Assembly (NCBI RefSeq): GCF_028291745.1
Contig: NZ_JAQGNQ010000101.1
Span: forward strand, 1-64,000
Source of the DNA: Ramlibacter sp.
GTDB taxonomy: Bacteria > Pseudomonadota > Gammaproteobacteria > Burkholderiales > Burkholderiaceae_C
Length of the DNA: 64,000 nt
Direction: 5' to 3'
In this document: in pieces, positions 2,218 to 41,000 of the stretch
How the letters are laid out: every line of letters starts with the position of its first letter
Position numbering within the stretch: position 1 is the stretch's first letter
Position numbers and translations under genes: made by a program
Notes under the pieces: model-generated
Database searches by the model: none
What the model was told of the DNA's origin: nothing
Seen by the model: only the letters and a program-made list of their open reading frames with translations

Positions 2218-2244
2218 GCGGCCTCGTGAGGGGTGGACTTCACT

Positions 2245-2340
2245 CCCTCTCCCGCCGCGCGGGAGAGGGTGGGGGTGAGGGTGCGTGCAATGCCGGCGCC
2301 GCTGCCCTCACCCCTGCCCTCTCCCGCAAGCGGGAGAGGG
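2245..2340. repeat. Composite REP-like palindromic pair
   Basis: Two hairpins with 9-10 bp stems ('CCCTCTCCCG...CGGGAGAGGG') lie at 2245-2269 and 2318-2340 in opposite orientation, with complementary outer flanks, so the whole unit is itself an inverted repeat. It fills the spacer between thiolase and thioesterase genes. This is the layout of bacterial BIME/REP pairs; it may act as an mRNA processing or attenuation site inside the operon. Confidence 0.8.
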
Positions 2341-2362
2341 AGAAAGAAGGGAATGCGGCGGC

Positions 2363-3568
2363 TCAAACCCGCTCGAAAATCCCCGCCGCCCCCTGCCCCA
2401 TCCCCACGCACATCGTCACCATCCCGTACTTCAGGTTCTTGCGCCGCAGCGCATGCACCACCGTCGCGGAGCGGATCGCGCCGGTGGCGCCGAGCGGGTG
2501 GCCGAGTGCGATGGCGCCGCCCATGGGATTGACCTTGGACGCATCGAGACCCAGAGTGGCTATCACCGCCAGCGACTGCGCGGCGAACGCTTCGTTCAGT
2601 TCGATCCAGCCCATGTCGTCCTGCTTGAGGCCGGCGTTCTTCAGGGCCGCGGGAATGGCTTCGATGGGACCGATGCCCATGATCTGGGGCGGCACGCCGC
2701 GGCTGGCGTAGCTGACGAAACGCGCGAGCGGCTGCAGCCCGAAGCGCTTGACGGCCGCTTCGCTGGCCAGGATCAGCGCGCCGGCGCCGTCGGAAGTCTG
2801 CGAGCTGTTGCCCGCCGTCACGCTGCCGCGCGCCGCGAACACGGGCTTGAGTCTGGCGAGTGTTTCCACCGTCGTGTCCGGCCGCGCGCCTTCGTCGAGG
2901 TTGACCTTGCGGGTGGCGATGCTGACTTCGGCCGACGCGAGGTCGAGCGAGCGCTCGGCCACTTCGACGGCCGTGATCTCATCGCCGAACTCGCCGGCCT
3001 TCATGGCGGCGATCGCCTTCATGTGCGACCGGTAGGCGAATTCATCCTGCGCATCGCGGCTCACCTTCCATTGGCGCGCGACCTTTTCGGCGGTGAGCCC
3101 CATGCCGTAGGCGATGCCGTAGCTCTCGATGTCGTCGGGGTTGGAGAAGATGGTGGGCGACAGCGAGGGCGTGTTGCCCATCATGGGCACCATGCTCATG
3201 CTCTCGGTGCCGGCGGCGATCATCACGTCGGCCTCGCCGACGCGGATGCGGTCGGCCGCCATCTGCACGGCGGCCAGCCCGGAGGCGCAGAAGCGGTTCA
3301 CGGTGATGCCGCCGACCGACTTCGGCAGGCCCGCGAGCACGGCGCCGATGCGCGCGACGTTGAGCCCCTGCGGCCCTTCGGGAATCGCGCAGCCGCAGAC
3401 AATGTCCTCGATGGCGTGCGGGTCGAGGGTCGGGACCTGCGCGAGAGCGGACTTCAGCACGCTGGCGAGCAGTTCGTCCGGCCGCATGTTGCGAAAGAAG
3501 CCACGATGCGAGCGCCCGATGGGGGAGCGGGTGGCGGCGACGATGTAGGCGTCCTGGATTTGTTTCAC
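2363..3568 (-). CDS. Acetyl-CoA C-acyltransferase (thiolase)
   Basis: A 401-aa type-I thiolase that cleaves 3-ketoacyl-CoA, the last beta-oxidation step. The nucleophilic Cys lies in 'NRFCASGLAAVQMAADRI' (about residue 90). The C-terminal 'GHPLGATGAIRS' and 'CVGMGQGAAGIFE' supply the His and second Cys. The start is GTG at 3568, overlapping the DUF559 stop by GTGA; a TGA lies two codons upstream in frame, and AGGAG sits 8 nt before it, so this start is well fixed. Relatives from memory carry a slightly longer N-terminus, so the upstream insertion may have trimmed it. It works with the dehydrogenase/hydratase fusion encoded upstream. Confidence 0.95.
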   Translation of the reverse strand: MKQIQDAYIVAATRSPIGRSHRGFFRNMRPDELLASVLKSALAQVPTLDPHAIEDIVCGCAIPEGPQGLNVARIGAVLAGLPKSVGGITVNRFCASGLAAVQMAADRIRVGEADVMIAAGTESMSMVPMMGNTPSLSPTIFSNPDDIESYGIAYGMGLTAEKVARQWKVSRDAQDEFAYRSHMKAIAAMKAGEFGDEITAVEVAERSLDLASAEVSIATRKVNLDEGARPDTTVETLARLKPVFAARGSVTAGNSSQTSDGAGALILASEAAVKRFGLQPLARFVSYASRGVPPQIMGIGPIEAIPAALKNAGLKQDDMGWIELNEAFAAQSLAVIATLGLDASKVNPMGGAIALGHPLGATGAIRSATVVHALRRKNLKYGMVTMCVGMGQGAAGIFERV

Positions 3569-3981
3569 TGGTCAGGCTCCTGGCTGTTGGCTCCTTCCCC
3601 CTCCGGGGGAAGGCTGGGATGGGGGCGCTCGCCCACCAGCCCGAGTTGTTCGGCGATGACGCTCAGCACGCCATCCATGTTCGTCAACGGTTCGTTGGTC
3701 GCGAATCGCAGGACCGCGAAGCCGTGGGCGCGGAAGAATGCATCACGATCGGCGTCGTACTCCACCTGGTCGGCATGCTGCGAGCCATCCAGTTCCACGA
3801 TCAGTTTCGGCGCCAAGCAGGCGAAGTCCGCAACGTAGTTACCGAGCGGGTGCTGCCTGCGAAACTTCACCCCGAGTTGCTCCATGCGCAGTTTCGACCA
3901 GAGTTTCCGCTCCGAGTCGGTCATGCCCGCCCGCAATTTGCGGGCGTTGCCGTGCGTGGTGGAGAAGGCCTGGTTCCGCAT
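3565..3981 (-). CDS. DUF559 (PD-(D/E)XK/Vsr-like) domain protein
   Basis: A 138-aa protein with the DUF559 core 'LWSKLRMEQLGVKFRRQHPLG', then 'VADFACLAPKLIVELDGSQH', then 'RDAFFRAHGFAVLRF'. Its D/E-x-D residues resemble a Vsr-type endonuclease fold. No function has been firmly assigned to the family. It interrupts a fatty-acid operon where it has no metabolic role. The last codons ('GERPHPSLPPEGEG') are encoded by a 38-bp repeat whose inverted copy lies just upstream of the start codon, so the gene looks like cargo of a repeat-bounded cassette. Confidence 0.85.
   Translation of the reverse strand: MRNQAFSTTHGNARKLRAGMTDSERKLWSKLRMEQLGVKFRRQHPLGNYVADFACLAPKLIVELDGSQHADQVEYDADRDAFFRAHGFAVLRFATNEPLTNMDGVLSVIAEQLGLVGERPHPSLPPEGEGANSQEPDQ
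3593..3630 (-). repeat. 38-bp REP-like inverted repeat, copy A (inside DUF559 3' end)
   Basis: Contains an internal palindrome ('CCTTCCCCC'/'GGGGGAAGG'). Its reverse complement matches the copy at 3984-4021 at 37 of 38 positions by eye. It encodes the Pro/Glu-rich C-terminal tail of the DUF559 protein. Confidence 0.85.
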
Positions 3982-3983
3982 GG

Positions 3984-4021
3984 GAGCGCCCCCATCCCGG
4001 CCTTCCCCCGGAGGGGGAAGG
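3984..4021 (+). repeat. 38-bp REP-like inverted repeat, copy B (upstream of DUF559)
   Basis: Near-perfect inverted partner of 3593-3630, ending 2 bp before the DUF559 start codon and filling most of the spacer to the upstream fad gene. A third, more diverged copy lies at 9624-9661, so this is a dispersed family. Confidence 0.85.
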
Positions 4022-4038
4022 AGGGAGACAGGGCAGCC

Positions 4039-6495
4039 TCAATTGCGCACCGGCTTCCCCGTACTCAGCATCCCCAGGATCCGCTCCTGCGTCTTCGGGT
4101 GCTGGACCAGCGCGCAGAAGGCCTGGCGCTCCAGCGTCATCAGGTATTCCTCCGTCACCAGCGTATTGGCGTCCACATCCCCGCCCGTGACCACATTGGC
4201 AATCAGCGAAGCGATATGAAAGTCGTGCGCGCTGGCAAAGCCGCCATCGCGCAGGTTCACCAGTTGCCCCTGGATCGTCGCCTTCGCGCTGCGGCCCGCC
4301 ACCGGGAACAGGCGCTTGTGCGGCGGGCGGTAGCCCGCGTCGTACAGCGACTTCGCCTGTTGCAGCGCGATGTACAGCAGTTCGTCCTTCTGCGGCACGA
4401 CGATGTCGCTCTCCAGCAGGTAGCCTAGCTTGCGCGACTCGATCGCGCTCGTGCCCACCTTGGCCATCGCGGCGGCCGTGAACCCCTCGGTCAGGAACTT
4501 CAACAGGTCGCGGTCGGTGCTGCTCGCCGCGTTCTCCGCGGCGCGGCGCGCGATGTACGTGAGGCCGCCGGCCCCCGGCACCAGGCCGACGCCCACTTCC
4601 ACGAGGCCCATGTAGCTTTCCATCGCCACCACGCGCCTGGCCGAATACAGCCCCAGCTCGCAGCCACCGCCCAGGGCCAGCCCGCGAATCGCGGACACCA
4701 CCGGCACGCTCGCATAGCGCAGACGCAGCATCGTCTGCTGCATGAAGCCTTCCGCGTCTTCGATGGCCGCCACGCCCACGGCAATGAAGGCCGGCAGCGT
4801 CGACTCGAGGTCGGCGCCGGCGCTGAAGGGTTCATCGCCAGACCAGATCACCATGCCCTGGAAGTCCTTCTCGGCCATCTCCACCGCCTGCTGCAGGCCC
4901 TCGCACACCTCGGGGCTGATGGTGTGCATCTTGGTCTTGAGGCTGACGATCAGCACCTCGTGGTCCAGCGTCCACAAGCGGATGTTCCGGTCCTCGTGCA
5001 GCGTCGTGCCCGCAGCCTCGAAGCGGGGACCCGCCTCGCCGCGCAGCAGCTCGAGGAACAGCTGGCGCTGGTACACCGGCAGCACGCGACGCGGCGCGAA
5101 CTTGCCGCTGGTGGGATTGAACGATCCCTGCTCGGTGTGCACGCCGCCCGCGTCGGCGACCGGGCCCTTGAACACCCACTCGGGCAGCGGCGCGTTCGAG
5201 AGCGTCTTGCCGGCCGCGATGTCCTCCTGGATCCACTGCGCCACCTGCAGCCAGCCCGCCTCCTGCCACAGCTCGAACGGGCCCTGCTTCATGCCGAAGC
5301 CCCAGCGCATCGCCTGATCGACGTCACGCGCGGTTTCGGCGATCGTGGCCAGATGCACGGCGGCGTAGTGGAAGCTGTTGCGCAGAATGGCCCACAGGAA
5401 CTGGCCCTGCGGTCCGGTCGCATTGCGCAGCAGCTTCAGGCGCTCGGCAGCCGGCTTCTTCAGCATGCGGCCATAGACCTCGTCGGCCTTCTGGCCGCCG
5501 GGAATGTACTCCTCGCTTTCCAGCTCGAAGCGCAGGATGTCGCGGCCCACCTTCTTGTAGAAGCCGGCCTTGGTCTTCTGGCCGAGGTTGCCGAGTGCGA
5601 TCAGCTTGGCCAGCACCGGCGGCGTGCCGAAGCTGCCATAGAAGGGATCGGTCTCGGGCGACAGCGTGTCCTGCAGCGTCTTGACGACGTGCGCCATCGT
5701 GTCCAGGCCCACGACGTCCGCCGTGCGGAAGGTGCCGCTGGAAGCGCGACCCAGCTTCTTGCCGGTGAGGTCGTCGACCACGTCGAACGACAGGCCAAAT
5801 TTCTCCACCTCGCGCATCGTGCCCAGCATGCCGGCGATGCCGACGCGGTTCGCGATGAAGTTGGGCGTGTCCTTGGCGCGCACCACGCCCTTGCCCAGCG
5901 CACTGGTGACGAAGGTCTCCAGCTGGTCGAGGATCCCGGGCCGCGTGGTCGGCGTGGCGATCAGTTCCACCAGCAGCATATAGCGCGGCGGGTTGAAGAA
6001 GTGGATGCCGCAAAAGCGCGGCTTGAGCGCATCGGGCAGCGCCTCGGACAGCTTCGTGATCGACAGGCCCGAGGTGTTGGACGCGACGATCGCATGCTTG
6101 GCGATGTGCGGCGCGATCTTCCGGTACAGATCGAGCTTCCAGTCCATGCGCTCGGCGATCGCCTCGATCACCAGGTCGCATTCGCCCAGCAGCGCCATGT
6201 GCTCTTCGTAGTTCGCGGGCTGGATCAGACCAGCGTCTTCCGGCACCCCCAGCGGCGAGGGCTTGAGCTTCTTCAGGTTCTCGACGGCCCGGGTCACGAT
6301 GCCGTTCTTCGCACCGTCCTTGGCCGGCAGATCGAACAGCACCACCGGCACCTTCACGTTCACCAGGTGCGCCGCGATCTGCGCGCCCATCACGCCGGCG
6401 CCCAGCACGGCCACCTTCCTCACCAGGAAGCGGTTGGCCATCGCCCTGGCAGCCGCGGCCTGCACGGCGGCTTGTTCGTCTTGGTCCTTGTTCAT
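4039..6495 (-). CDS. 3-hydroxyacyl-CoA dehydrogenase/enoyl-CoA hydratase fusion
   Basis: An 818-aa beta-oxidation enzyme with domain order dehydrogenase then hydratase, the reverse of E. coli FadB. An NAD-binding fold comes first ('VAVLGAGVMGAQIAAHL', residues ~28-44), with 'NTSGLSITKLSEALP' and 'GIHFFNPPRYMLLVELI' near 165, then the helical dehydrogenase C-domains. The C-terminal crotonase domain (from about 510) has 'FSAGADLESTL' and 'GLALGGGCELGLYSARRVV'. It should hydrate enoyl-CoA and oxidise the 3-hydroxyacyl-CoA for the thiolase. ATG 6495 is preceded by GGGAG. A repeat and the DUF559 cassette now separate it from its thiolase partner. Confidence 0.93.
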   Translation of the reverse strand: MNKDQDEQAAVQAAAARAMANRFLVRKVAVLGAGVMGAQIAAHLVNVKVPVVLFDLPAKDGAKNGIVTRAVENLKKLKPSPLGVPEDAGLIQPANYEEHMALLGECDLVIEAIAERMDWKLDLYRKIAPHIAKHAIVASNTSGLSITKLSEALPDALKPRFCGIHFFNPPRYMLLVELIATPTTRPGILDQLETFVTSALGKGVVRAKDTPNFIANRVGIAGMLGTMREVEKFGLSFDVVDDLTGKKLGRASSGTFRTADVVGLDTMAHVVKTLQDTLSPETDPFYGSFGTPPVLAKLIALGNLGQKTKAGFYKKVGRDILRFELESEEYIPGGQKADEVYGRMLKKPAAERLKLLRNATGPQGQFLWAILRNSFHYAAVHLATIAETARDVDQAMRWGFGMKQGPFELWQEAGWLQVAQWIQEDIAAGKTLSNAPLPEWVFKGPVADAGGVHTEQGSFNPTSGKFAPRRVLPVYQRQLFLELLRGEAGPRFEAAGTTLHEDRNIRLWTLDHEVLIVSLKTKMHTISPEVCEGLQQAVEMAEKDFQGMVIWSGDEPFSAGADLESTLPAFIAVGVAAIEDAEGFMQQTMLRLRYASVPVVSAIRGLALGGGCELGLYSARRVVAMESYMGLVEVGVGLVPGAGGLTYIARRAAENAASSTDRDLLKFLTEGFTAAAMAKVGTSAIESRKLGYLLESDIVVPQKDELLYIALQQAKSLYDAGYRPPHKRLFPVAGRSAKATIQGQLVNLRDGGFASAHDFHIASLIANVVTGGDVDANTLVTEEYLMTLERQAFCALVQHPKTQERILGMLSTGKPVRN

Positions 6496-6510: not shown

Positions 6511-7041
6511 TTACTGCACGCGCACCCAGGTCTGCGTGCGGTAGAACGGGCCGAGGTAGCCCCGCACCTGCAGCTTCTGGCCGTTGTCGACCGGCGCGAG
6601 CTTGAGCGTGTATTCCTTGCCGTTCTCGGGGTCGAGGATCTTGCCGTTCTCCCACACGTCCTGCCCATCGGCCTTGCGGGCCCCGCGGATGATCTCCAGC
6701 CCCTGGATGGCCTGGCCCTTGCGTTCGTCCTTGCACTCCTCGCAGGTGGGCTTGGCGTCCTTCTTCAGGGTCTTCTCGATGCGGCCGGTGAGCACGCCGC
6801 CGGATTCGCTGATGCGGATCTCCGCCTTCGCTTCGCCGCTCTTGTCGTCGATGCTGCGCCAGAGGCCGACGGGTGAGACCTGGGCGAACACGCCGCCAGC
6901 TACCAGGAGGAGCCCCAGGAATGTCATTGCGGGCTTGACCCGCAATCCACGCGCGACACGAGCGCCGCTTGGATCCCGGGTCAAGCCCGGGATGACATCC
7001 ATTTTCGGCCGTTGTTCGCAGTGGGTCTTCATGCTGTTCAT
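6511..7041 (-). CDS. DUF2147 secreted protein with repeat-disrupted signal peptide
   Basis: The mature part from 'VSPVGLWRSIDDKSGEAKAEI' to 'YLGPFYRTQTWVRVQ' is a DUF2147 domain (~110 aa), usually periplasmic and of unknown function, with a CxxC ('CEEC'). The hydrophobic segment 'FLGLLLVAGGVFAQ' is a normal signal-peptide core. Between the natural start ('MNSMKTHCEQ', ATGA overlap with the acyl-CoA dehydrogenase) and that core lies 'GLTRDPSGARVARGLRVKP', encoded by a REP-like repeat. Export may fail, or translation may restart at an ATG inside the repeat (6927). Coordinates use the longest form. Confidence 0.8.
   Translation of the reverse strand: MNSMKTHCEQRPKMDVIPGLTRDPSGARVARGLRVKPAMTFLGLLLVAGGVFAQVSPVGLWRSIDDKSGEAKAEIRISESGGVLTGRIEKTLKKDAKPTCEECKDERKGQAIQGLEIIRGARKADGQDVWENGKILDPENGKEYTLKLAPVDNGQKLQVRGYLGPFYRTQTWVRVQ
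6921..7000. repeat. Composite REP-like element (family B) within the DUF2147 gene
   Basis: Two palindromic halves in opposite orientation: 'TGCGGGCTTGACCCGCA' and 'TCCCGGGTCAAGCCCGGGA', each ending in a GTCAT/ATGAC edge. The same composite recurs at 11845, 16005 and 17189. Here it is translated in frame as part of the N-terminus. Confidence 0.85.
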
Positions 7042-9623: not shown

Positions 9624-9661
9624 GAGCGCCCCCGCCCCAGCCCTCCCCCGGAAGGGGAGGG
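9624..9661 (+). repeat. Third copy of the 38-bp DUF559-flanking repeat
   Basis: Starts 'GAGCGCCCCCGCCCCAGC' and ends in a CCCTCCCC...GGGGAGGG palindrome. It aligns over 38 bp with 3984-4021 with a few differences and has no DUF559 gene next to it. It lies in the spacer upstream of the TetR gene. Confidence 0.75.
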
Positions 9662-9679
9662 AGCAAGACCGAACCGGGC

Positions 9680-11810: not shown

Positions 11811-11844
11811 GGGTGTTGGTCACGCAGGATGGGATGCGTGTATT

Positions 11845-11966
11845 GGATGTCATCCCGGGCTTGACCCGGGATCCACGACGGCCTGTGCCCGAGCGCCGTC
11901 GTGGATTGCGGGTCAAGCCCGCAATGACATCCGGGTGGATTGCGGGTCCAACCCGCAATGACATCC
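11845..11966. repeat. REP-like family B cluster (three half units)
   Basis: Halves 'CATCCCGGGCTTGACCCGGG', its inverted partner with TTGCGGGTCAAGCCCGCAA, and a third, slightly changed half (GGTCCAACC) lie between the convergent lactonase and FAH genes. Placed there they could serve as a bidirectional transcription end. Confidence 0.85.
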
Positions 11967-11973
11967 GGGAGCG

Positions 11974-16001: not shown

Positions 16002-16004
16002 CGA

Positions 16005-16090
16005 GGATGTCATCCCGGGCTTGACCCGGGATCCATGCTGCGCCGGGACATGCGCCGTCGTGGCTTGCGGGTCAAGCCCGCAATGACATC
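16005..16090. repeat. Composite REP-like family B element
   Basis: Opposed halves 'CATCCCGGGCTTGACCCGGG' and 'TTGCGGGTCAAGCCCGCAA' in the 127-bp spacer between the UxaA and Ldh genes. Both genes point the same way, so the element probably lies inside a transcript. Confidence 0.85.
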
Positions 16091-16128
16091 CGGACATCCG
16101 AACAAATATCAAAACTCGAAGGAGACCC

Positions 16129-17187
16129 ATGAGCAAGACCCTCCCCGCCGCGCACCTGCGCACCACCGTCACCGACATCCTCACCGCCGCTGGCAGCACG
16201 CGCGAAGAAGCGCAGGCGGTCGCCGCCAACCTGGTGCTGGCCAACCTGAGCGGCCACGACTCGCATGGCGTCGGCATGGTGCCGCGCTACATCGATGCGG
16301 TGCTCGAAGGCGGCCTGAAGCCGAACACCGGCATCGCGGTGAAGCTGGAGGCGCCCAGCCTGCTCGCCATTGACGGCCAGCGCGGCTACGGGCAGATCGT
16401 CGGCGAGCAGGCGATGGCCCGCGCCATTGCGAAAGCGCAGGAGACCGGCAGTTGCGTGATGGCGCTGGCCAACGCGCATCACCTCGGGCGCATCGGCCAT
16501 TTCGCCGAAATGGCGGTGCAGCGCGGGCTGGTGTCCATCCACTTCGTGAACGTGCAGTCGCGCCCGGTGGTGGCGCCCTGGGGCGGCGGCGACGGGCGCT
16601 ACGGCACCAATCCCTTCTGCGTCGGCGTGCCGCTGCCGGGCCAGCCGCCGTTCGTGCTGGACTTCGCGACCAGCCGCGTCGCGCAGGGAAAGATGCGCGT
16701 GGCGTACAACGAGGGCCGGCAGGTCGAGCCGGGCACGCTGATCGACGAGAAGGGCCGGCCGACGACCAACCCCGGCGTCGTGGTGGTGCCGCAACCGGGT
16801 GGCATGTTCGGCGCGCTGCTGGCCTTCGGCGAACACAAGGGCTACGGCATGGCCATTGCCTGCGAGTTGCTGGGCGGCGCCCTCACCGGCAGCGGCACCT
16901 GGCACCGGCCGGCAGACAGCCTGCGGGCGGTGATCAACGGAATGTTCACCATCGTCGTCGATCCGGCCAGGCTGGGGACGCAGAGCGAATTCGAGCGCGA
17001 GGCACTGGCCTTCGTCGAGTGGCTCAAGCAAAGTCCGCCGGCGCCCGACAGCGAAGGCGTGATGCTGGCCGGCGAACCGGAGCGCAAGGCGCGGCGCGAA
17101 CGCGAAGCGGCCGGCATCGAGGTCGACGACCAGACCTGGCGCGAGATCGTCGCGGCGGGGAAGAAGGTCGGGGCGACGGTGGAATAA
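16129..17187 (+). CDS. Ldh (malate/L-lactate dehydrogenase) family oxidoreductase
   Basis: A 352-aa member of the NAD(P)-dependent Ldh family, unrelated in fold to classical lactate dehydrogenases. Family marks are 'SGHDSHGVGMVPRYIDAVL' (catalytic His ~46), 'NAHHLGRIGHFAEMA', 'VAPWGGGDGRYGTNPF' and 'EHKGYGMAIACELLGGALTG'. It reduces or oxidises 2-keto/2-hydroxy acids. AAGGAG lies 8 nt before the ATG. It follows the UxaA dehydratase and probably acts on a keto-acid or hydroxyacid product of the same pathway; which one is not readable. Confidence 0.9.
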   Translation: MSKTLPAAHLRTTVTDILTAAGSTREEAQAVAANLVLANLSGHDSHGVGMVPRYIDAVLEGGLKPNTGIAVKLEAPSLLAIDGQRGYGQIVGEQAMARAIAKAQETGSCVMALANAHHLGRIGHFAEMAVQRGLVSIHFVNVQSRPVVAPWGGGDGRYGTNPFCVGVPLPGQPPFVLDFATSRVAQGKMRVAYNEGRQVEPGTLIDEKGRPTTNPGVVVVPQPGGMFGALLAFGEHKGYGMAIACELLGGALTGSGTWHRPADSLRAVINGMFTIVVDPARLGTQSEFEREALAFVEWLKQSPPAPDSEGVMLAGEPERKARREREAAGIEVDDQTWREIVAAGKKVGATVE

Positions 17188-17188
17188 A

Positions 17189-17314
17189 GGATGTCATCCC
17201 GGGCTTGACCCGGGATCCATGCTGCGCCCGTGCCAGCGCCGCCCTGGCTTGCGGGTCAAGCCCGCAATGACATCCCACTGCGACACATTGCGGGTCAAGC
17301 CCGCAACGACATCC
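17189..17314. repeat. REP-like family B cluster (three half units)
   Basis: Same halves as at 11845, with the third unit reduced to 'ATTGCGGGTCAAGCCCGCAA'. It starts 1 bp after the Ldh stop and lies between convergent genes, a likely transcription end. Confidence 0.85.
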
Positions 17315-17327
17315 CTGCCCGACGCGC

Positions 17328-37578: not shown

Positions 37579-39264
37579 TCACTTCCGGTTGTCGTTGCGG
37601 TACACCGACACGCGCTCCATCCCGGACACGCGAACCGGACCGGCGATGCGAGTGAAGCCGCCGCGCGCCAGAATCTGGTCGCGGTAGGCGATTGCGTACG
37701 GATTGATCGGGTGGTGCTCGATCAGCGTGTTGCCGTCTTCCGGGAAGATCAGGTAATCGACATTGCGCACCGCGTCGGAGACCAGGCCCGCCACCTTGTC
37801 TTGGTCGCTCGCACCCGGCAGCGCCTTCCAGTCGTAGGGGTTGGCGAAGCTGACACCGAGGTCGGCCGTCTTCAGGTGCACCCGGCCCTTGATGGCGTTC
37901 GAGCCGTTCAGCGGCACGAAGCCCCGATCGAAGATCAGCGAATTGAAGACCACCGTGGAATCGAGCGTGCCCACGTACGTCACCTCGAAGGACGCCTCGC
38001 GTTTGCCGCGCGCCGCCAGGTCGGCGTCGATCGCGCCGGTGATGTTCTGCAAGGCGGGCGCCAGCGGTCGCCACGGGTCGGCGTTGGTCGTGTGGGTCCG
38101 CACGCCGCCCCAGGCGGTGATGACCACCACGGCGCAGGTGGCCAGCACCGCAGCGCCCACGAGGTGCACATTGGCCGCAGAGCCCGGCCGCCCGGCATAC
38201 GGTGCCAGCGCGAACATCAGCAGGCCAGGCACCGACGTCATCGAGACGTAGGGATTGCCGAGACTGGTGCCCAAGGCGATGAGGAAGCCCACCGGCAGCA
38301 GGCCCGTCAGCAGCATGGCCCAGTTCAGCCCGCGCGCGAGGGGCTGCCGACTCGCCACGCGCTGGCAGACGGCCCCGAGGAACACCGCGCCTGCCAGCAC
38401 GGCCACCGGCAGGCCCATGTGGGTCGCAAACACCAGGCGCAGGTGCCCGATGCTTTGCGGCAGCGGCAGCCGCGCGAGCGCGTCGTAATTGCGCGCCGTG
38501 TAGTACTCGTATAGCAGCTGGAAATTCAGCACGTAGAACCAGCCCGCCAGGACGGCGGCCGTGACGCCGGCTGCCAGGTAGTCGAGCAGGCGGCGACGGC
38601 GATCGACTCGGGCGACGACCAGGTCGGTGACGCCGGCAATGACCAGCAGCAGGACGACGTAGACGGCGCTGGTCGCGCGAAACAGCAGCGCGGCGGCGAG
38701 TGCAACGCCCAGCAGAAACCAATGCCGGCGCGCTCCGGTCGCCCGCGCCACCGCCAGCACGGCGCCGGCCGTGCCGAGTGCAAGCGCCTGCGCGAGGTCC
38801 ATCCGAAGGTCGGACAGTCCGCCGTTGAAAAAGAACACCGCCGCGTACGTGACGGTGAGCATCGCGAACGCCGCCGCCATCGGGCGTTCGTAGCAGGCAA
38901 CGCGGCGGAAGAACAGATAGGCGGCGGCGACCTGCGCCCCGACCAGCGGCAGTTGCAACAGCACCGCGTCGGCGCGGGCAGGCTGGAGCAGCGGCCCCAG
39001 CAAGGCCGATTCCACCCAGGGCAGGAACACGGTCGAATTGACGCTGCCCAGGCGCACGGCGGAGAGCACGCCTTCGCTGCGAGCGCGCACCATCAATTCG
39101 GCCATGAAGTTCATGTACGACAGCGAGTCGTAGAAGGGGCCGTAGGAGCGGTAGTAGAGCCCGTTGAGATAGATGGCGAAAGCGGCCAGCGCTACCACGG
39201 CCAGGCCCATGGCGAGCACGGTCGTGCGGGCGGAGACCGGCAGCGCTGCCTGCGGCACGGACAT
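37579..39264 (-). CDS. GT-C-like membrane protein, tandem paralogue B
   Basis: A 561-aa polytopic protein. Start 'MSVPQAALPVSARTTVLAMG' is used; earlier frame has no homology to its paralogue. About 10 TM, first loop 'YRSYGPFYDSLSYMNFMAEL' with the acidic residue expected in GT-C enzymes, then 'FFNGGLSDLRMDLAQALALG'. The C-terminal ~170 aa end 'VRVSGMERVSVYRNDN'. It is a full-length paralogue of the adjacent 574-aa protein. It probably uses a polyprenyl-phosphate sugar in the periplasm. No named family was recognised. Confidence 0.8.
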   Translation of the reverse strand: MSVPQAALPVSARTTVLAMGLAVVALAAFAIYLNGLYYRSYGPFYDSLSYMNFMAELMVRARSEGVLSAVRLGSVNSTVFLPWVESALLGPLLQPARADAVLLQLPLVGAQVAAAYLFFRRVACYERPMAAAFAMLTVTYAAVFFFNGGLSDLRMDLAQALALGTAGAVLAVARATGARRHWFLLGVALAAALLFRATSAVYVVLLLVIAGVTDLVVARVDRRRRLLDYLAAGVTAAVLAGWFYVLNFQLLYEYYTARNYDALARLPLPQSIGHLRLVFATHMGLPVAVLAGAVFLGAVCQRVASRQPLARGLNWAMLLTGLLPVGFLIALGTSLGNPYVSMTSVPGLLMFALAPYAGRPGSAANVHLVGAAVLATCAVVVITAWGGVRTHTTNADPWRPLAPALQNITGAIDADLAARGKREASFEVTYVGTLDSTVVFNSLIFDRGFVPLNGSNAIKGRVHLKTADLGVSFANPYDWKALPGASDQDKVAGLVSDAVRNVDYLIFPEDGNTLIEHHPINPYAIAYRDQILARGGFTRIAGPVRVSGMERVSVYRNDNRK

Positions 39265-39275
39265 GGGGCTGGTGG

Positions 39276-41000
39276 TCAATGGGCGTGCTCGTTCCAGTAC
39301 ACCGATACCGACTCCATGGGCGAGATGCGGATGGGCCCGACCACGCGGGTGACGCCGGGGCTCGACGTCAGCAAGTCGCGGTACGCGAAGGCATAGGGCG
39401 TGCTGGGCAGGCCAGGCTGCAAGTGGGTGCTGTTCTCCGGGACGATCAGGTAATCGGCATCCTTGAGCGTGCCGGCGGCCAGCGTGTGGATCTTGTCCTG
39501 GCCCGTCGCGCCGGGAAGCGCGTTCCACTGGATCGGGTTCGCCAGCAGACCCGGGCCGCGCATCTCGCTCGCCATGATGGCCAGCCCGTCGCGGGTGGAA
39601 CGGGTGGTGATGTCATAGACGTAGCCCTGCTCGAACACCAGCGAGTTGACGACCGCGACCGAGTCCAGGCCACCGGCATACGCGACGTCGAACTTGACGA
39701 GATCCCTGTTGCGCATCTGCAGGTCGTGGTGGATCGCGTTGGTGAGCTGCGTCAGGCCGTCCATGGTCGGCGTGTACGGCGACGCTGCGCGCGAGTGTGT
39801 GTCGATGGCCACGGGCACCGCCACGAGCACCGCCACCGCGCCGGCCACGACGTAGCTCACGGTCCGCCGGCGGCTCCACACGGTCTCGGTGCTCGCCGCG
39901 TACGGAGCCAGCCCGAACAGCAAGGCGCCGGGAACCGCCACCATCGACACATAGGGATTCAGCGCCGCGCCGAACAGCACCAGGAAGCAGAGCGGCAGCA
40001 GGCCGGCCAGCATCGGCAGCCAGTTCAGCCCGCTGCGGAACGACTGGCGGGACGCATGGCGGGAGTACAACTGCGTGAGGAACACGAACACCATCAGCAG
40101 GCAGATCGGCTTGCCCAGGTGCTGGCTCACCAGGAAGCGCAGGTGGTAGACGCTCTGGCTCAGCGGCAATCTCGCGTTGGCGTCGTAGTTCCACACGAGG
40201 TAGTAGTAACGCAGGTAGGCAAAATTGACGACGTAGAACCATCCCGAAATGGCGAGCGCCACGCCGCCGCCGACGAAGTAGCGCGCCAGCCGCGGCTTGA
40301 ACTCGCTGCGGTACAGGATGAAGTCGATGACGGCGGCTACGCCGCACAGCAGCACTGCGTACACCGGGGTGGTGGCGCGGAACAGGAAGGCCACGCCGAG
40401 GATTACGCCGAAGATGAGCCAGTCGCGCAGCCGCTGCGTGACGCGCGCCACCGACAGGAAGGCGACAGCGGCACCGAAGGCCAGCGCCTGCGAAAGGTCC
40501 AGGCGCAGGTCGGACAGTCCTCCGTTCACCCGGAACACCGCGAGGAAGGACACCGTCACCATCGCGAAGCACACGCACACCGCCTGCGGATAGCGCGCGA
40601 TGCGGCGGAAGAAATAGTACGAACCGAGGGCCTGCGCCAGCACCAGCGGCAACTGGATCAGCACCGATTGCTCGCGCACGGGGTTGACGAACAGCGCGAG
40701 CAGCGCCCCTTCGAGCCAGGGAAAGAAGACGGTTTGGCCGCCAATCGCCACCCGCAGCGCGGCCTTCATGTCCTGCGCGCGCACGGTGCCCATCACCTTG
40801 GCGAGCTGCGTGGTGTACGACATCGAGTCGTAGAAGGGCCCCTGCCGTGAGTAGTAAACCTGGTTCAGGTAGGTTGCATAGAGGGCCAGCAATGCGATCA
40901 GGGCCAGCAGCACCAGGACCGGTTTCGTGATCCAGGTCCCGGCGGTATTGGTCGGTTCCGTTGCCACCCAGTTGGTCGCTTGTTGTGACGCGTCCATCAT
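39276..41000 (-). CDS. GT-C-like membrane protein, tandem paralogue A
   Basis: A 574-aa polytopic protein, colinear with its downstream neighbour: 'YSRQGPFYDSMSYTTQLAKV', 'VNGGLSDLRLDLSQALAFGA', 'WNYDANARLPLSQSVYHLRF', 'NPYVSMVAVPGALLFGLAPY' and the ending 'IRISPMESVSVYWNEHAH' all have counterparts there. First TM 'VLVLLALIALLALYATYLNQ'. A tandem duplication followed by divergence is clear from the order of shared blocks. A lipid-linked sugar transferase role is inferred from topology only. Confidence 0.8.
   Translation of the reverse strand: MMDASQQATNWVATEPTNTAGTWITKPVLVLLALIALLALYATYLNQVYYSRQGPFYDSMSYTTQLAKVMGTVRAQDMKAALRVAIGGQTVFFPWLEGALLALFVNPVREQSVLIQLPLVLAQALGSYYFFRRIARYPQAVCVCFAMVTVSFLAVFRVNGGLSDLRLDLSQALAFGAAVAFLSVARVTQRLRDWLIFGVILGVAFLFRATTPVYAVLLCGVAAVIDFILYRSEFKPRLARYFVGGGVALAISGWFYVVNFAYLRYYYLVWNYDANARLPLSQSVYHLRFLVSQHLGKPICLLMVFVFLTQLYSRHASRQSFRSGLNWLPMLAGLLPLCFLVLFGAALNPYVSMVAVPGALLFGLAPYAASTETVWSRRRTVSYVVAGAVAVLVAVPVAIDTHSRAASPYTPTMDGLTQLTNAIHHDLQMRNRDLVKFDVAYAGGLDSVAVVNSLVFEQGYVYDITTRSTRDGLAIMASEMRGPGLLANPIQWNALPGATGQDKIHTLAAGTLKDADYLIVPENSTHLQPGLPSTPYAFAYRDLLTSSPGVTRVVGPIRISPMESVSVYWNEHAH

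What the first reader, a model, noticed from the sequence alone, without database searches (positions are those of the whole stretch)
3565..4021. DUF559 gene as cargo of a 38-bp inverted-repeat cassette inside a fatty-acid operon
Repeats at 3593-3630 and 3984-4021 are inverted copies differing at about one base in 38. One encodes the protein's C-terminal tail, the other abuts the start codon. The gene splits the dehydrogenase/hydratase from its thiolase. A third copy without DUF559 lies at 9624. Transposase-REP (RAYT) pairs are known; a DUF559 nuclease in that position suggests an analogous mobile or repeat-spreading unit.
Basis: partly seen in the sequence, partly recalled or inferred. Interest (0 to 1): 0.66.

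Follow-up and report, generated by a model that had tools for sequence, protein, structure and literature searches.

The report
Nuclease gene paired with scattered hairpin repeats
A small DNA-cutting-enzyme gene (DUF559) sits between two mirror-image copies of a hairpin repeat that is scattered through the same genome; across many bacteria gene and repeat tend to come and go together, which suggests, but does not prove, that the enzyme spreads or maintains the repeat.

Summary
In detail: a single DUF559 nuclease gene (3565-3981, -) lies between 40-nt inverted repeats (39/40) in a fadB-thiolase operon. In 53 same-genus genomes that junction holds a full gene (24), a remnant (4), nothing (17; gap 1-31 nt), or a longer gene-less gap or contig end (8). 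All 28 genes and remnants have the repeat beside them, 25 on both sides. Full-gene genomes carry 2-146 repeat copies (median 34); empty-site genomes 0 in 13 of 17, at most 9. Two gene types at this site carry two matching repeat types (24/24 full genes). Across Pseudomonadota, 65 of 103 DUF559 loci have inverted-repeat flanks (shifted controls 1/206) and repeat-rich genomes are enriched for DUF559 (odds ratio 25). Gene-less copies are often REPIN-like doublets of the same geometry. Y1 (RAYT-family) genes do not track the repeats. The gene is not a recent insert here: it is old at this site, often lost, and cassettes get swapped. Best reading: a REPIN/RAYT-like pairing in which a Vsr-fold nuclease stands where the Y1 transposase would. 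The association is well supported; mobilisation by DUF559 is inferred. No held paper describes it.

The parts
3565..3981 (-). DUF559 (PF04480) gene, 138 aa, PD-(D/E)XK/Vsr-like nuclease; only full copy in the genome
   Evidence: Pfam E 2.7e-37; one genome-wide match; fold match to 3HRL, I-Bth0305I and Vsr
3591..3630 (.). Type A repeat arm, overlapping the 3' end of DUF559; G-rich tail faces the gene
   Evidence: Inverted pair I2, 98% complementary
3984..4023 (.). Type A repeat arm, inverted, ending 2 nt before the DUF559 start codon
   Evidence: Inverted pair I2; sequence
2363..3568 (-). Thiolase gene, downstream neighbour; GTG overlaps the DUF559 stop by 4 nt
   Evidence: Thiolase_N and Thiolase_C
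4039..6495 (-). fadB-like dehydrogenase/hydratase gene, upstream neighbour
   Evidence: 3HCDH_N, 3HCDH, ECH_1
2243..2342 (.). Type B repeat doublet (REPIN-like, tails inward) downstream of the thiolase; absent at this place in several relatives
9624..9667 (.).

Best explanation
DUF559 is the dedicated partner enzyme of a palindromic repeat family, arranged like REPIN-RAYT but with an unrelated nuclease fold. Shown here: usually one gene per genome in this genus, lying between two inward-facing repeat units; many gene-less copies, often doublets with the same inward geometry; gene and repeats present or absent together; gene type matching flank type; gene and flanks replaced together at a fixed site. 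Inferred: the protein recognises its repeat (perhaps the hairpin a doublet can form in single-stranded or cruciform DNA), cuts at or near it, and host repair then copies or reinserts the doublet elsewhere. The gene itself mostly stays put and is probably transcribed with the host operon.
For: 17 empty, 24 filled, 4 remnant sites in the genus; repeat counts 2-146 with the gene, 0-9 at empty sites, Mann-Whitney p 1.2e-7, and about 6 of 7 independent pairs concordant, none discordant. Type match 24/24 full genes; type B share of repeats higher with a type B gene, p 0.0025. 65/103 phylum loci flanked against 1/206 controls; odds ratio 25 for repeat-rich genomes. Doublet geometry and long hairpin. 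Cassette swap between 92-95% identical flanks. dN/dS about 0.1 in the closest pairs. Nuclease fold. Y1 genes do not track the repeats.
Against: No movement, binding or cutting was observed. 37% of phylum loci did not pass the flank test. Type B repeats persist in genomes with only a type A gene. About ten repeat-bearing genomes had no DUF559 match even at a loose cut-off. Arm and protein similarity did not correlate across the phylum. Other transposase families were not surveyed.
Confidence: 0.55

Rival explanations
1. Passenger model: the repeats are moved in trans by some other transposase that treats them as ends, and DUF559 is cargo caught between two units.
For: The cassette has the shape of a composite element; two genomes hold recent duplicate cassettes.
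Against: DUF559 presence predicts repeats within the genus and across the phylum, with matched types; cargo need not. The obvious candidate, Y1/RAYT, is present in 57 of 59 genomes whatever the repeat count, is not found in the genome with most repeats, and none of 18 Y1 loci is flanked by the repeat.
Confidence: 0.2
2. Housekeeping model: DUF559 is a repair or hairpin-processing nuclease that a repeat-bearing genome needs; it follows the repeats rather than spreading them, and the flanking copies are sites it protects or is regulated by.
For: Vsr fold; purifying selection; a Caulobacter DUF559 protein, VsrA, has a DNA-damage phenotype linked to a methyltransferase (PMC12907096); in some genomes repeats are many but DUF559 is not flanked.
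Against: Does not by itself explain why the gene is bracketed by its own repeat type in inward orientation, nor cassette swaps.
Confidence: 0.17
3. Homing-like model: the nuclease mainly drives copying of its own cassette into matching sites (allelic or repeat-containing), and gene-less doublets are by-products.
For: Second-best fold match is the catalytic domain of homing endonuclease I-Bth0305I; cassette exchange at one site.
Against: Gene copies are few while doublets are many; empty sites are common; the protein is a single small domain with no added DNA-binding domain.
Confidence: 0.06
4. Coincidence: repeats fill intergenic gaps and happen to lie beside DUF559.
For: Repeat units also occur in other gaps of the same operon.
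Against: Shifted windows in the same loci give 1/206 against 65/103; genome-level association p 2e-30; type match.
Confidence: 0.02

Closest known systems
REPIN-RAYT systems (REP doublets with a Y1/HUH tyrosine transposase; PMC3116915, PMC8266576)
   Same: Short palindromes in inverted doublets, scattered in intergenic DNA, beside a gene that is usually single copy; gene types with their own repeat types
   Different: Partner gene is a Vsr-fold nuclease, not a Y1 transposase; no GTAG tag in the repeat; movement not shown here
CGTC-tagged and untagged REP-like repeats (PMC3733652)
   Same: REP-like repeats without an associated tyrosine transposase; the paper says untagged repeats still need study
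   Different: The DUF559-linked repeat here has no CGTC tag; a candidate enzyme is proposed. The window also holds CGTC-like repeats that are a separate family
Vsr endonuclease and DUF559/VsrA of Caulobacter (1VSR, 3HRL, PMC12907096)
   Same: Same family or fold; VsrA carries a DUF559 domain
   Different: No repeat partner reported in the passages read; Vsr acts on T:G mismatches (own knowledge), activity not tested here
MITEs and composite elements
   Same: Inverted ends around a gene, with gene-less short copies of the same ends
   Different: No transposase between the ends; the gene-bearing copy is not multi-copy in most genomes; target duplications not examined

Membership tests
REPIN-RAYT | Partner gene is a Y1/HUH tyrosine transposase | tested here: not met
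   Gene matches PF04480; Y1 genes lie elsewhere and 0 of 18 are flanked by the repeat
REPIN-RAYT | GTAG tag beside the palindrome | tested here: not met
   No GTAG in the 40-nt arms
REPIN-RAYT | Palindromes arranged as inverted doublets | tested here: met
   13 of 21 close pairs sampled face inward, 1 outward; loci were picked by core match, so not a random sample
REPIN-RAYT | Excision or transposition of doublets observed | not testable with these tools
   No population sequencing; presence/absence between species only
CGTC REP superfamily | CGTC (or TGTC/CCTC) tag and CCA tail | tested here: not met
   No CGTC in the arms and no CCA tail; stem ends differ (definition)
DUF559 (PF04480), PD-(D/E)XK fold | Profile match above cut-off and fold | tested here: met
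   127.4 bits against 20.6; 3HRL E 1.5e-7
Vsr repair endonuclease | Nicks T:G mismatches; partner of a cytosine methyltransferase | not tested
   Only fold similarity (1VSR E 4.5e-3); methyltransferase linkage was not examined
MITE/composite transposon | Target-site duplication at the ends | not tested
   Relatives are too diverged at the junctions to align ends exactly; not measured

The most novel reading that the evidence does not exclude
A large, undescribed class of bacterial repeats whose spread depends on a stand-alone Vsr-fold nuclease: an independent origin of the REPIN/RAYT arrangement, and the missing partner of many untagged palindromic repeats in Pseudomonadota and perhaps Deinococcus.
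Probability: 0.45. Interest if true: 0.92.

Novelty: new variant of a known kind. Interest (0 to 1): 0.8.

Why it matters
REP-like repeats are common, and a 2013 survey (PMC3733652) states that one superfamily has no dedicated transposase and that untagged repeats need study. A gene that predicts where one such class occurs, with matched gene and repeat types, gives a candidate enzyme to test and a possible role for DUF559, a Pfam family still named 'unknown function'. If true, unrelated enzymes have arrived at the same repeat-keeping arrangement.

Tried and rejected
Mantel test of arm against protein similarity across the phylum: nothing (rho 0.03, p 0.30). Automatic count of tail direction in phylum loci was crude (14 toward the gene, 2 away, 49 undecided); I do not lean on it, and one Deinococcus case points away. 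A G-quadruplex-like motif was found in 23 of 65 left arms against 1 of 390 control segments but not pursued, as C/G-run palindromes produce it easily. Independent-pairs test was run with three codings: remnants as absent gave median p 0.06, remnants left out or counted as present 0.03. Phages (3 of 50,697 records) and plasmids (39 of 72,556) hold few relatives, against a phage or plasmid cargo reading. A first alignment failed on a stop codon (redone). Literature searches on DUF559, COG2852, Vsr with REP, and REPIN with nuclease found no description of the pairing; the library is open access only.

Full report
What is there. The DUF559 gene (3565-3981, minus strand, 138 aa) matches PF04480 and is the only full DUF559 gene found in the 5.49 Mb genome. 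It lies between fadB (4039-6495) and a thiolase (2363-3568); its stop overlaps the thiolase GTG. Its flanks are 40-nt inverted repeats, 39/40 complementary. Each arm is a palindrome (CTTCCCCCTCCGGGGGAAG) on the outside with a G-rich tail toward the gene. One arm is read through as the protein's C-terminal tail. The window holds 7 exact 18-mer inverted pairs within 600 nt; 20 simulated sequences hold none.

The repeat in this genome. The core has 53 forward and 48 reverse matches at up to 3 mismatches (palindromes can count on both strands) against 1 and 1 for the reversed pattern. Many copies are doublets: palindrome, G-tail, spacer, C-tail, palindrome. Of 21 close pairs in the loci I held, 13 face inward and 1 outward; these loci were picked by core match and are not a random sample. 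A doublet has the geometry of the DUF559 cassette without the gene and can fold into one long hairpin (-47 kcal/mol, z -8.8). A second type (type B, CCCTCTCCCGCNNGCGGGAGAGGG) has 30 copies, including the doublet at 2243-2342.

The same place in relatives. I read the fadB-thiolase junction in 53 same-genus genomes: 24 full genes, 4 remnants, 17 empty (gap 1-31 nt), 7 longer gene-less gaps, 1 contig end. Two gene-less gaps (G002, G004) keep a lone type B unit. All 28 genes and remnants have repeat units beside them; in 25 they straddle the gene. The exceptions are remnants G009 and G022 and the full gene of G063, whose two units both lie upstream. The junction is also occupied in other genera of the family and in records named Variovorax and Polaromonas. 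The gene is therefore old at this place and has been lost, or exchanged, many times; on a thiolase tree, which is weakly resolved in places, the labels need 13-14 changes.

Gene and repeat go together. Over three repeat patterns, full-gene genomes have 2-146 copies (median 34) and empty-site genomes 0 in 13 of 17, at most 9; Mann-Whitney p 1.2e-7. The cassette itself supplies up to two of those copies. Because relatedness inflates such tests I also used independent pairs on well-supported branches: with remnants left out, about 6 of 7 pairs agree and none disagrees (median p 0.03); with remnants counted as absent the median p is 0.06. Draft assemblies tend to break at repeats, which would lower counts.

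Types match. The DUF559 proteins at this site fall into two types, the second 51-59% identical to the window protein. All 17 full type A genes have type A units and all 7 full type B genes type B units. The four remnants are consistent but partly typed by their arms, so I do not count them. The type B share of genomic repeats is higher with a type B gene (p 0.0025). Type B repeats also persist in several type A genomes, including this one; a past cassette replacement would explain that but is not shown.

Cassettes are replaced as units. In two genomes of a distant genus (G117/L205, G372/L227) the DNA on both sides is 92-95% identical while the DUF559 proteins are 46% identical and the arms differ. 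In G390 two cassettes on different contigs are 97% identical over 619 nt, within arrays of repeats, and in G237 two cassettes 5.7 kb apart are 86% identical, so duplication of the cassette does happen.

Across the phylum. In 348 Pseudomonadota genomes 100 have DUF559 at E<=1e-20. I took 103 loci, mostly the best-scoring, some genomes giving more than one. An inverted repeat of score 15 or more joins the flanks in 65 and in 1 of 206 shifted windows of the same loci; other cut-offs give the same picture (13: 68 and 4; 20: 51 and 1). Four or more copies of CCCTCNCCCN{2,6}GGGNGAGGG occur in 69 of 100 DUF559+ and 20 of 248 other genomes (odds ratio 25). The pattern was designed after seeing DUF559 flanks in this sample, so the comparison is not blind, and species within a genus are not independent. 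Re-examining the 20 exceptions at a looser cut-off found some DUF559 match in 10, a few clearly fragments, others weak and uncertain; only that side was re-examined. Many DUF559+ genomes with few copies are in one family (f71) whose cassettes have other palindromes. Two Deinococcus plasmids and a Sphingomonas plasmid carry DUF559 with inverted flanks in hpa and suf operons. E. coli ycjD and three other records looked at (Azospirillum, Sinorhizobium, Neisseria) did not pass the flank test.

Not RAYT. Y1_Tnp genes occur in 57 of 59 genus genomes, usually once, including every empty-site genome; G063, with most repeats, has none found. None of 18 Y1 loci holds the palindromes within about 1.5 kb. 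Other transposase families were not surveyed.

The protein. The model (mean pLDDT 75, termini poor) matches the DUF559 structure 3HRL (E 1.5e-7), the catalytic domain of homing endonuclease I-Bth0305I (7e-5) and, weakly, Vsr (4.5e-3). D52, E63, D65 and H69 are invariant in seven relatives; that they are catalytic is inferred from the fold. dN/dS is 0.07-0.15 in the closest pairs and 0.22 at the median, so the protein is kept for a function.

Mechanism. The anatomy is that of REPIN-RAYT: usually one partner gene, many gene-less doublets, matched types. The most likely reading is that DUF559 recognises and cuts its repeat, perhaps as a hairpin, and host repair copies or inserts the doublet elsewhere. 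Recognition, cutting and insertion are all inferred; correlation cannot tell an enzyme that spreads the repeats from one that is kept because they are there. A passenger gene moved by another transposase and a repair nuclease are the main alternatives.

Known or new. By enzyme and by tag this is not a RAYT system and not the CGTC superfamily. No held paper links DUF559 or COG2852 to such repeats, but the library is open access only, so an earlier description elsewhere cannot be excluded.

Noticed in passing
window 6918-7003, 11844-11968, 16004-16093, 17186-17317: A separate family of palindromic repeats (e.g. TGTCATCCCGGGCTTGACCCGGGATCCA) that resembles the CGTC/TGTC-tagged REPs of PMC3733652.
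   Followed up: partly
window 2243-2342: Type B doublet after the thiolase; relatives have type A, type B or nothing in the corresponding gap.
   Followed up: partly
L014 (G000 contig 53, about 2923-3033): A type B unit lies inside the spacer of a type A doublet, a nested arrangement.
   Followed up: no
L108, L109 (genomes G019, G066): Fad junctions without DUF559 hold another short repeat (GGGACAGA...AATTTTGCTCTG), twice in G066.
   Followed up: no
L313 and L314 (Deinococcus plasmids): DUF559 lies at different positions within the hpa operon in the two species, on the opposite strand to the operon.
   Followed up: no
G290, G407, G355 (L161, L158, L170): 97-219 repeat copies but no inverted repeat joining the flanks of their DUF559 gene.
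   Followed up: no
window 38282-38333 and 39982-40033; 39114-39141 and 40814-40841: Two direct repeats with the same 1700-nt spacing, suggesting tandem paralogous genes.
   Followed up: no
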